The notes beneath the pieces were generated by a model. That model was not told the origin of the DNA. It worked only from the letters and a program-made list of their open reading frames with translations, and searched no databases. Below are positions 53,203 through 55,658 of a stretch of DNA of 64,000 bases, piece after piece. Origin of the DNA: Noviherbaspirillum sp. L7-7A (GTDB lineage: Bacteria; Pseudomonadota; Gammaproteobacteria; Burkholderiales; Burkholderiaceae_D); contig NZ_JAHQRJ010000001.1 in NCBI RefSeq assembly GCF_019052805.1, positions 2,790,001 to 2,854,000 on the forward strand, given 5' to 3'. Both the position numbers and the translations under genes were made by a program. Position 1 is the stretch's first letter. The number at the start of each line of letters is the position of its first letter.

Positions 53203-53244
53203 AACCGAACAAAACCGATAAAAGGATATTTGTTCGGTTTTTTT
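53203..53244 (+). terminator. thiD terminator
   Basis: AACCGAACAAA (53203-53213) and TTTGTTCGGTT (53229-53239) form a stem followed by a seven-T run, 54 bp after the thiD stop. Confidence 0.85.
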
Positions 53245-53727
53245 CTACATAAATAGGGACATGGCTTTGCCGGCGCCAGTTGATTCCCACGCTTAACGCT
53301 GATCGGTCTCCCAGGACAGGCCCGACAGTTTGTGCTATCAGGAAATTTTCCGGTCAGGCAGTCTTTGGATACCGTGAGAACCTGCAAATTCCGCCATCAG
53401 CAGGCTCGTGAATTGAATTTCACCCGAACATCGATAGACGCAAAATTATCCTCAAAATGATTCATCAGCCAAGTCGGGCTTGGAAACGGCGCTGCCATGC
53501 TGCATTCCGGGCGCGGCCCCATCCATATTGCAGCCGCTCCATTGCCCGGGGCAGGAATACCGGAGCATGACGACGGCTGATCAAGCGCGTTGCCTCACGC
53601 CGTCGAGCATCAGGTCCGCAGGCCTTGCCTGCCTGCTTCCCTTGCCGCATCAAGGCGAAAGCCGCTCGCAATCCCGCCGGGCGCGGATCGCCGGCACATC
53701 GCCTCTCATGGCGAAGCAGACAGCGCC
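53245..53727. other. Intergenic region before the SLOG-like gene
   Basis: 483 bp without a convincing gene. 53340-53470 is clearly more AT-rich than the rest of the window and may hold a promoter, but no consensus pair stands out. A short ORF at 53480-53731 has no recognisable features and is not accepted. Confidence 0.5.
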
Positions 53728-54324
53728 ATGAAATCACGCGCCCCATGGATCGTACTGTTCGCCGGCCCGATGCTGGACGCACCGCTCTGCGAGCGGGAAC
53801 GCTTCCCGGCCGACATGGCGCCGCTGGCGACTGCCGAAATCGCACTGCGCCTGGCGCTGCTGGATGCCGGTCCGGGCGACCTGGCGTTGTGCGATGGCGC
53901 CTGCGGCGGCAGCCTGCTGTTCGCCGAGGCGGCGCTGGCGCGTGGCATGCGGCTGGAACTGCGCCTGCCATTCGATGAAAAACGCTTCCTGCGGGAAGCG
54001 GTCGCCTTCGCCGGCCAGCACTGGCTGTCGCGCTACCTGCGCATCCGCAGCCATCCACGCACAGTGGCCTACTGCCTGCCCGAGCAGGCCGTGCCCGCCG
54101 CCGGCAACCCCTTCGCCGAGGCCGGTCAGTGGCAGCTCAACGCCGCCCTCTCGCATGGCAGCGACCGGGTATGGCTGATGACGCTGTCGGAAGGCCCGAA
54201 TGCTTTCGACGCCGGAAGCGGTACTGCGCAATTGGTGGAGGCCGTGCATCGCTATACTGGACAGATCATTGCCATCGATGCCGCTCATTTGCTGCGCAAG
54301 ACCAGGGAACGCCGGCGCAACTGA
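53728..54324 (+). CDS. SLOG/Rossmann-like protein paired with a TIR protein
   Basis: A 198-residue protein with no signal peptide or membrane helix. It starts with a strand-loop WIVLFAGPMLDAP. At 48-73 it has GPGDLALCDGACGGSLLFAEA-type sequence, a glycine-rich loop and helix typical of SLOG-like or LOG-type nucleotide-binding Rossmann folds, and GSGTAQLVEAV at 163-173. A similar domain occurs fused to cyclases and TPR effectors in other bacteria (family knowledge, from memory). It lies 132 bp before the TIR gene on the same strand. A nucleotide-sensing or enzymatic role is inferred. Confidence 0.65.
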   Translation: MKSRAPWIVLFAGPMLDAPLCERERFPADMAPLATAEIALRLALLDAGPGDLALCDGACGGSLLFAEAALARGMRLELRLPFDEKRFLREAVAFAGQHWLSRYLRIRSHPRTVAYCLPEQAVPAAGNPFAEAGQWQLNAALSHGSDRVWLMTLSEGPNAFDAGSGTAQLVEAVHRYTGQIIAIDAAHLLRKTRERRRN

Positions 54325-54456
54325 CGGCGCCTGACCTCATGCGCGTCGCCCTTTGCGGCCAGGCATGCCGGCGCAGACGGGCGCGCAGCATGGCAAGCCA
54401 GCGCAATAACGCCAGAGACAGTTCGTCAGGCGTTTTACCTCGATACGGAGCCTGCC

Positions 54457-55071
54457 ATGCCCGACGTTTTTCTGAGTTATGCCGAACAGGACCGCGATAC
54501 CGCGCGCCGTGTCGCCAGCCTGCTGCAGGCACAGGGCTGGAGCGTTCACCCGGAGCAGGCGCCGGCCAATGATGCCGAAGCGCGCTGCATGGTAGTACTG
54601 TGGTCGCGTCACTCCGTCAACAATGACCAGGTGGCCGCCGAGGCCGAGCAGGGGCGCGCCCGCCATGCCCTGGTGCCGGTGCTGCTGGAACAGGTCACGC
54701 CGCCGCCCGGCCTGCGCAGCATCCAGGCGGCCGACCTGTCGGGCTGGGACGGCACGGCCGCTGCGCCCGGCGCGCGCCAGCTGGTGGCCGACCTGGCCGG
54801 GCTGCTGGGCCAGCCGCTGCCATCGGGGCGGGTGATCCTGCCGCCGGTGAAGGTGGCGCCGCGCCTGCATCCGGCCTGGCTGATCCTGGTGGCGCTCGGC
54901 CTGCTGCTGGCCGCCGGCCTCGGCGCCATCACCCTGTGGCGCAACGCGCCGGCGCCAAAGCCGGCCGCAGCCGCGGCCACCCTGCTTTACGCAGCCAGCA
55001 GCGCCGCCAGCGGCGCGGTCCAGCCGACGATGCCGCCCTGGGCGCGGATCATCGCCAGCGTCGCCTCGTGA
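54457..55071 (+). CDS. TIR-domain protein with C-terminal membrane anchor
   Basis: A 204-residue protein. The TIR domain (about residues 1-118) begins [21 protein letters not shown]62 in QVAAEAEQG is at the position of the catalytic glutamate of TIR NADases, though the tryptophan usual three residues earlier is absent. A single helix at 139-161 ([16 protein letters not shown]) would anchor it in the membrane with TIR in the cytoplasm. From about residue 178 the frame is antisense to the convergent hydrolase gene, so the native C-terminus may have been lost. A GGAG site lies 6 bp before the ATG. Confidence 0.82.
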
Positions 55072-55658
55072 AAGGCCGGGAAGTAGCTGGCGGCCGCATC
55101 CTCCACCAGCAGGCATTCGTACCCGCGGTCATTGGCCTCGCGCATGGTGGTCTGCACGCAGACCTCGGTGGTCACGCCGGCCAGCAGCAGATGGCTGATG
55201 CCCCGCTTCCGCAGCACCTCGTTTAGCCCGGTGGCATGGAAGGCGCCCTTGCCGGGCTTGTCGATCACGAGCTCGCCTTCCAGCGGCGCGACCTCGGGCA
55301 GGATCTGGTTGCCCGGCTCGCCGCGCACCAGGATGCGGCCCATCGGCCCGGCGTCGCCGATGCGCAGCGTCGCATTGCCGCGCAGCCGCTTGGCCGGCGG
55401 GCAATCCGACAGGTCGGGCAGATGCGATTCCCGGGTATGCACCACCAGCAGGCCCAGCGCGCGCGCATGCGCCAGCAGCGCCGCCACGGTGGGCACGATG
55501 GATGACAGCGTGCCCACGTCATTGCCCAAGGCCGCGCCAAAGCCGCCGGGCTCGATGAAGTCGCGCTGCATGTCGATGACGATCAGCGCGGTGCGCTCCG
55601 GCGCATAGCGGTAGGCATAAGGCGCCGCATCGACCTCGCGTTCCGGACTTGCAGTCAT
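54987..55658 (-). CDS. Isochorismatase-fold hydrolase (BiuH-like)
   Basis: A 223-residue cysteine hydrolase. The catalytic triad is visible as D29 (VIDMQRDF), K134 or K137 ([10 protein letters not shown]) and C167 ([11 protein letters not shown]). The family includes biuret amidohydrolase, ureidoacrylate hydrolase and nicotinamidase. The start at 55658 was chosen because GGAGAAG lies just before it. It is the last gene of the AtzEG-ABC operon, which makes a biuret- or ureide-type substrate plausible. The 3' end overlaps the convergent TIR gene by 85 bp. Confidence 0.88.

What the first reader, a model, noticed from the sequence alone, without database searches (positions are those of the whole stretch)
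53728..55071. SLOG-like protein paired with a membrane-anchored TIR protein: possible NAD-linked signalling or defence pair
The two genes are adjacent on the same strand, isolated between the thiD terminator and a convergent operon. The first has a glycine-rich Rossmann/SLOG-like loop (GACGG at 57-61), the second a TIR domain with the catalytic-position Glu (E62) and one membrane helix. SLOG and TIR domains are both recurrent in bacterial nucleotide-signalling immunity. A two-gene arrangement with TIR held at the membrane, without TPR, SAVED, STING or NLR modules, is not one I can match to a named system. Function is inference.
Basis: partly seen in the sequence, partly recalled or inferred. 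Interest (0 to 1): 0.7.

Follow-up and report, generated by a model that had tools for sequence, protein, structure and literature searches.

The report
Inactive-looking TIR and SLOG protein pair
Two neighbouring genes in a soil bacterium encode relatives of bacterial immune signalling proteins, but both have lost parts that normally do the chemistry while natural selection still seems to keep them, so they probably no longer make an NAD-based signal.

Summary
Both genes are real and correctly placed. ORF1 (53728-54324) has a SLOG fold: a confident AlphaFold model whose best solved match is YpsA, then DprA. ORF2 (54457-55071) is a TIR protein with one membrane helix. Relatives of ORF1 sit in bacterial conflict loci (TPR-S fusions; TIR, patatin, SLATT, STAND, CHAT neighbours); 33 of 85 such loci have a TIR gene on the same strand within 4 kb, so SLOG plus TIR is a recurrent, partly known association.

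The NAD-signalling reading fails on detail. The TIR lacks a BB-loop/alphaB segment kept by all 70 other TIR rows compared, the aromatic residue of its WxxxE motif is Gln, and the catalytic Glu is Gln in Noviherbaspirillum soli, the only other genome found with the pair. The SLOG departs from its family at 13 of 52 conserved positions (next worst 5), about half of them at or beside predicted pocket loops, on a very long stem branch. Yet dN/dS between the two species is 0.12-0.18, like thiD. The host has no TPR-S and, as far as searched, no other TIR.

Best reading: a retained, probably non-catalytic pair derived from TPR-S/TIR-type conflict modules, acting by binding. A dying remnant or chance neighbours remain possible.

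The parts
53203..53245 (+). rho-independent-type terminator after thiD, upstream boundary of the pair
   Evidence: folded at -14.9 kcal/mol, z=-4.22; sequence read
53728..54324 (+). ORF1: standalone SLOG-fold protein (198 aa), divergent member of the TPR-S-associated SLOG family
53896..53913 (+). ORF1 residues 57-62 GACGGS: SLOG glycine loop; the family-conserved D62 is S
54457..55071 (+). ORF2: TIR protein with one membrane helix (204 aa)
54544..54579 (+). ORF2 residues 30-41: site where the BB loop and alphaB of the TIR domain are missing
   Evidence: 12 well-occupied TIR columns absent; alignments; model lists no helix of 4 or more residues there
54628..54642 (+). ORF2 residues 58-62 QVAAE, in place of WxxxE; E62 is Q in N. 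soli
54871..54942 (+). ORF2 membrane helix, residues 139-162
   Evidence: hydropathy; helix in model
54987..55071 (.). convergent overlap of the ORF2 3' end with the hydrolase gene
   Evidence: isolated matches to ORF2 residues of about 174-204 in other genomes fit antisense hydrolase sequence
54987..55658 (-). convergent isochorismatase-type cysteine hydrolase gene, downstream boundary (start codon inferred)
   Evidence: the family name is recalled from the sequence, not tested

Best explanation
The pair is a retained, probably non-catalytic derivative of the SLOG and TIR modules used in TPR-S-type bacterial conflict systems. Shown: SLOG and TIR folds (predicted models), a membrane helix, shared loss of pocket features in both proteins in the two host species, and a pattern of purifying selection between them. 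Inferred: the TIR, held at the membrane, acts as a docking or adaptor domain rather than an NADase, and the SLOG protein binds it, or a shared target, through protein contacts instead of reading an ADP-ribose signal. Its job would be to hold, sense or restrain something at the membrane. Whether that is anti-phage defence is not shown.
For: TIR: 12 well-occupied columns covering the BB-loop Gly and alphaB are missing in the window copy (0 of 12 kept) and N. soli copy (1 of 12); the other 70 rows keep at least 8. Residue 58, aromatic (W, Y or F) in 70 of 81 rows, is Q in both, and E62 is Q in N. soli. The deletion is derived: the pair's TIR nests with full-length TIRs L093 and L152 (98/92). The model shows no alphaB helix. 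SLOG: 13 of 52 family-conserved positions changed in the window copy and 12 of 52 in N. soli, against at most 5 in the other 50 rows (median over all 52 rows 2); stem branch 2.1 against a median end branch of 0.28. Selection: dN/dS 0.125 (bootstrap 0.061-0.213) for SLOG, 0.181 (0.084-0.338) for TIR 1-177, 0.168 for thiD. [quoted passage not shown] No other TIR_2 and no ThsB_TIR, SIR2_2 or TPR-S match in the window's genome.
Against: No binding or co-expression data. The window copy still has E62. A BB-loop deletion made ThsB autoactive rather than dead (PMC10022894, passages). The motif residue 58 is W in only 34 of 81 rows, so its loss alone is weak. dN/dS rests on one pair of species. The genes are 132 nt apart with no shown shared promoter (one search lists none on the + strand), and no host partner for an adaptor TIR was found. 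The Mal/TIRAP parallel is weak (see report).
Confidence: 0.45

Rival explanations
1. Decaying remnant: a former TIR/SLOG conflict locus that lost its sensor or effector and is now eroding, with truncation of the TIR and loss of SLOG pocket positions as early steps.
For: ORF2 is shorter at its C-terminus than L093 and L152 and ends inside the neighbouring gene; internal deletion; 13 of 52 conserved SLOG positions changed; presence in only 2 of 4 genus genomes; 5 of 10 TIR-domain differences between the species cluster at the deletion scar (p=0.00065, region chosen after looking).
Against: dN/dS 0.12-0.18 in both genes, codon-position bias as for thiD, and no stop or frameshift in either species.
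Confidence: 0.25
2. Active NAD-linked signalling or defence pair: the TIR makes an ADP-ribose signal that the SLOG senses, as in Thoeris.
For: TIR+SLOG logic as in Thoeris ThsB/ThsA (PMC9503650 and PMC10022894, passages); E62 present in the window copy; BB-loop loss can be activating in ThsB; ORF1's best structural match is YpsA, whose clade is said to include cADPr sensors (PMC9503650, passages).
Against: E62Q in N. soli, aromatic residue of WxxxE lost, alphaB and BB loop missing, conserved SLOG positions lost, no SIR2_2 or TPR-S match in the window's genome.
Confidence: 0.12
3. Chance neighbours: a solo SLOG and a solo membrane TIR, each with its own role, adjacent without functional link.
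For: The TIR's nearest relatives (in L162 and L163) lie in surroundings that look like housekeeping genes, with no SLOG hit in the 9-11.5 kb read; 132-nt gap; 24 of 30 other Burkholderiales SLOG loci show no TIR within about 1.5 kb.
Against: The two gene types are both present in 2 and both absent in 2 of the 4 genus genomes; the SLOG family is otherwise rich in TIR neighbours (33 of 85); G097 carries a separate TIR-membrane/SLOG pair 154 nt apart.
Confidence: 0.18

Closest known systems
TPR-S (PF20308) conflict systems with SLOG and TIR modules (Burroughs and Aravind 2020, recalled; paper not held)
   Same: same SLOG domain family, found at the C-terminus of TPR-S proteins or as a solo gene; TIR, patatin, SLATT, nSTAND1, CHAT and WD40 among neighbours or fusion partners
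   Different: no TPR-S match in the host genome; only two genes; degenerate SLOG and TIR
Thoeris (ThsB TIR + ThsA SIR2-SLOG)
   Same: two genes, one TIR and one SLOG
   Different: no SIR2 domain in ORF1 (198 aa, one domain); TIR lacks BB loop/alphaB and the aromatic residue of WxxxE; the two SLOG subfamilies were not compared directly here
G097 TIR-membrane/SLOG pair (locus L159)
   Same: solo SLOG and TIR, 154 nt apart; no TPR-S detected in the 14 kb read (in-house profile, which misses some)
   Different: reverse order; the TIR keeps the BB-loop/alphaB columns and the Glu (with Y for W), and the SLOG keeps the family motifs
Mal/TIRAP TIR domain
   Same: among the top Foldseek hits of the TIR model (ranks 7, 8, 12, 13 and 18); crystal structure without alphaB or BB loop, a bridging adaptor (PMC3317499, passages); membrane-anchored through phosphoinositides (PMC5796906, start of abstract)
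   Different: the Mal feature has been called a crystallographic effect, with cryo-EM showing a rather typical fold (PMC7075850, passages); in ORF2 the residues are really absent; no common descent claimed

Membership tests
SLOG superfamily | Rossmannoid fold of the YpsA/DprA/LOG type | tested here: met
   AF2 pLDDT 90.7; top Foldseek hits YpsA 2nx2 E=3.2e-6, DprA 4ljk E=4.9e-5; 4 of 52 family rows hit Pfam YAcAr SLOG at E<=0.01, P0001 does not
SLOG superfamily | residues conserved in its own SLOG subfamily, several of them at the predicted nucleotide pocket | tested here: not met
   13 of 52 conserved positions changed, including S12, H14, D62, N133, W154, G159, and (window only) G164; the glycines G57, G60, G61 are kept. 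The fold call stands; the intact-pocket claim does not
TIR domain superfamily | TIR sequence profile and fold | tested here: met
   TIR_2 55.3 bits against a cut-off of 28; Foldseek best E=1.2e-5, all 36 matches at E<=0.001 are TIR-containing
catalytic TIR NADase | WxxxE with catalytic Glu | tested here: not met
   QxxxE in the window, QxxxQ in N. soli; the Glu itself is present in the window copy
catalytic TIR NADase | BB loop and alphaB over the active site | tested here: not met
   12 columns deleted; no alphaB in the model
Thoeris | SIR2 domain on the SLOG protein (ThsA) | tested here: not met
   ORF1 is a 198-aa single domain; no SIR2_2 match in the window's genome, though N. soli has one
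TPR-S systems | TPR-S sensor protein in the locus | tested here: not met
   no PF20308 match in G000
TPR-S systems | SLOG domain of the TPR-S-associated family | tested here: met
   same family as the C-terminal domain of 34 long fusion proteins among L012-L091; Pfam finds TPR-S in 7 of the 7 fusions of that build that were scanned (L015, L004, L013, L090, L053, L068, L033)
anti-phage defence | protection against phage | not testable with these tools
   best PADLOC match of either protein E=0.0055 over 28 residues; needs experiment

The most novel reading that the evidence does not exclude
A bacterial adaptor pair made of two former nucleotide-signalling domains: a membrane-anchored pseudo-TIR that has lost BB loop, alphaB and an intact WxxxE, and a pseudo-SLOG that has lost conserved pocket positions, kept under selection as a non-enzymatic signalling or inhibitory complex. 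This would be a bacterial counterpart of the animal adaptor TIRs, reached from an enzymatic ancestor.
Probability: 0.3. Interest if true: 0.65.

Novelty: new variant of a known kind. Interest (0 to 1): 0.42.

Why it matters
Bacterial TIR and SLOG domains are usually taken to be NAD or nucleotide enzymes and sensors. A selected pair that lost both pockets would show that bacteria also use them as pure binding modules, as animals do with adaptor TIRs, and warns against calling defence function from domain names.

Tried and rejected
NADase signalling from E62 alone: set aside because E62 is not kept in the sister species and the segment around the active site is missing. Phage or plasmid origin: no phage record, no relative in one pattern-based viral-contig scan, 3 distant plasmid records. 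Recent foreign acquisition by base composition: GC of the pair is in line with its neighbours. A TAL-effector match in the PDB search of ORF2 was dropped as chance (E 0.002 at best, no stretch passing on its own). PADLOC hits were too weak to use. The dN/dS row for the hydrolase was out of frame and is void; the corrected value, for 215 C-terminal codons, is 0.125. My in-house TPR-S profile misses TPR-S genes that Pfam finds (L078, L067), so its count of 3 of 49 is a lower bound and is not used as evidence of absence. In one search longest-ORF gene calling hid some SLOG and TIR genes behind overlapping ORFs, so neighbour counts come from profile hits. Clean empty site: not found, because thiD is not beside the hydrolase in the two genus genomes without the pair.

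Rows: A3 holds ORF1 and 51 of the 80 family stretches (29 left out by hand, by no fixed rule). A5 holds ORF2, the N. soli TIR and 28 of the 44 TIR stretches. One search's 85 loci are those of L003-L091 with a SLOG hit below 1e-30 (L008-L011 fall out); they count one contig twice (L004 and L039), include N. soli itself, count L007 as solo although it is fused to another domain, and some have short flanks. In one search, 75 of 81 TIR rows spanned the site, and rows of three duplicate loci (L002, L004, L092) were dropped, leaving 72, which still include several domains of single proteins and close relatives. The genome searches score only up to 7 or 8 first-look candidates per genome in the larger runs, so misses are possible. 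The genome-contig scan kept 80 of 314 relatives.

Full report
Observation. Neighbours: a terminator hairpin after thiD at 53203-53245 and the 3' end of a convergent hydrolase gene, which ORF2 overlaps antisense by 85 bases. Several isolated matches of ORF2 residues of about 174-204 in other genomes fit antisense hydrolase sequence, so its C-terminal tail is read through the opposite strand of that gene.

What ORF1 is. No Pfam or NCBIfam family reaches its cut-off. Relatives are easy to find: 314 in one scan of genome contigs, of which the best 80 loci were kept. They occur as solo genes of about 200 aa or as the C-terminal domain of longer proteins, most often about 650 aa. In the 7 fusions of that build that were scanned, Pfam finds TPR-S each time. 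Weak Pfam hits to the YAcAr SLOG family appear in 4 of 52 family rows, not in ORF1. The AlphaFold model of ORF1 (52-row alignment, pLDDT 90.7, pTM 0.89) has YpsA as best solved match (E=3.2e-6, TM 0.63/0.69), then DprA; only these two pass E<=0.001, and the rest of the list mixes SLOG proteins (YgdH, ShosA, LOG) with unrelated Rossmann and TIM-barrel folds. The SLOG call is therefore sound.

What ORF2 is. A TIR domain (TIR_2, 55.3 bits), residues 1-113 by profile, then a membrane helix at 139-162. The model matches TIR structures, with confidence falling at residues 31-40 and in the linker. Its closest relatives, L093 and L152 (55% and 52% identity), are longer TIR proteins in surroundings that look like housekeeping genes; the tree places ORF2 and its N. 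soli ortholog with them (98/92).

Lost chemistry. Among 72 TIR rows after removing duplicates, the window and N. soli copies keep 0 and 1 of 12 well-occupied columns that cover the BB-loop Gly and alphaB; the other 70 keep at least 8. Residue 58, the W of WxxxE, is Q in both; it is W in 34 and Y or F in 36 of 81 rows. The catalytic-position residue is E in 68 of 72, including the window, and Q in N. soli; the other three are Q, S and D. In most bacterial TIRs this Glu is required (PMC11374754, passages). ThsB E85Q is described as lacking catalytic activity, but a ThsB BB-loop deletion was autoactive (PMC10022894, passages), so the loop loss alone does not prove inactivity. In ORF1, 13 of 52 positions conserved in at least 90% of 50 relatives are changed (12 in N. 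soli; next worst row 5, median 2). About half of the 13 (S12, H14, D62, W154, G159, G164) fall at or just after strand ends in the model (strands 8-12, 52-55, 148-154), where Rossmann-type proteins bind ligands (general knowledge); G164 is changed only in the window. The stem branch of the two orthologs is 2.1 changes per column against a median end branch of 0.28; its exact place in the tree is not well supported.

Still selected. Between the window and N. soli, dN/dS is 0.125 for ORF1 (39.0 synonymous and 16.0 non-synonymous differences), 0.181 for ORF2 residues 1-177, 0.168 for thiD and 0.125 for the hydrolase. Differences sit mostly at third positions (38 of 55 and 33 of 48). Rapid change came first and constraint followed, which fits a new, non-catalytic use better than plain decay; but this is one species pair, and 5 of the 10 TIR-domain differences sit at the deletion scar (region chosen afterwards).

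Distribution. Of 4 genus genomes the pair is in 2; the other two keep the hydrolase but have neither the pair nor thiD beside it. In 392 genomes of the family, close orthologs of ORF1 occur only in those 2; four more have distant relatives. In 399 genomes of the order, 31 have a match to the SLOG family at E<=1e-10, the window's included. Of the 30 other loci, 6 have a TIR hit within about 1.5 kb, one of them on the opposite strand and two of them short or cut-off ORFs. In the wider set 33 of 85 loci have a TIR on the same strand within 4 kb (18 of 49 solo, 15 of 36 fused). With one TIR_2 match in each of the four genus genomes (three over the cut-off), chance would give well under 1% at such a density (my estimate; some other genomes carry more TIRs). 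So SLOG and TIR are linked in the family, while this particular pair is rare. Other neighbours or partners are patatin, SLATT, nSTAND1, CHAT, WD40 and a weak pYEATS match, the company of conflict systems.

Host. The window's genome has no TPR-S, no other TIR_2, no ThsB_TIR and no SIR2_2 match; N. soli does have one SIR2_2 match. Other TIR families were not searched. So neither a TPR-S receiver nor a second TIR for the pair is visible in the window's genome.

Mechanism. Shown: folds (by prediction), membrane helix, loss of pocket features, constraint. Inferred: the membrane-held TIR works by binding, perhaps with ORF1. A partial precedent is animal Mal/TIRAP, whose crystal structures (3ub4, 2y92, 3ub2, 4lqd) are among the top structural matches and which was described as lacking alphaB and BB loop (PMC3317499, passages); another survey reports that this looks like a crystal effect and that cryo-EM shows a rather typical fold (PMC7075850, passages). 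I use it only as an analogy.

Known or new. TIR and SLOG coupling in anti-phage signalling is published (PMC9503650, passages; PMC10022894, passages). The TPR-S concept is, by recall, from Burroughs and Aravind 2020, which is not held but is cited in PMC8195603 for a TIR-made NAD+-derived signal (passages). A search for TPR-S with SLOG and TIR found no paper. A search for inactive TIR or pseudoenzyme terms with SLOG and anti-phage held 15 papers, of which the 8 listed show no such pair by title and start of abstract. The library holds only open-licence papers.

Odds. 

Noticed in passing
L159:6362-7969: Separate two-gene TIR-membrane/SLOG pair in another Burkholderiales family (G097), reverse order; the SLOG keeps the family motifs and the TIR its BB-loop/alphaB columns and Glu (Y for W); no TPR-S seen nearby. 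A better candidate for an active minimal TIR+SLOG system than the window's pair.
   Followed up: partly
L007:316-1731: SLOG domain of this family followed in one protein by a region that looks like a phage-type lysozyme/endolysin domain (by eye), with a TIR gene 146 nt away on the other strand.
   Followed up: no
L008, L009, L010, L011: Distant relatives of about 620-680 aa with the SLOG in the middle and, by eye, a nucleotide cyclase domain at the end; Pfam confirms TPR-S and Guanylate_cyc for L010.
   Followed up: partly
L161:6029-13001 and L048:5953-12573: Solo SLOG followed by a gene that in L161 looks caspase-like by eye (two pieces; one ORF in L048, not checked) and a long ORF of at least 1706 aa that runs off the end of both loci.
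   Followed up: no
L071:1773-5957 and L082:1767-5960: Cyanobacterial proteins of 1394 and 1397 aa with three TIR domains in a row, overlapping a solo SLOG gene by a few bases.
   Followed up: no
L144:4846-5248: In N. soli the longer gap between thiD and the SLOG gene (about 1.5 kb) holds a simple tandem repeat (repeated KKA or LAF in the ORF listing) that I did not see by eye in the window's 0.58-kb gap.
   Followed up: no
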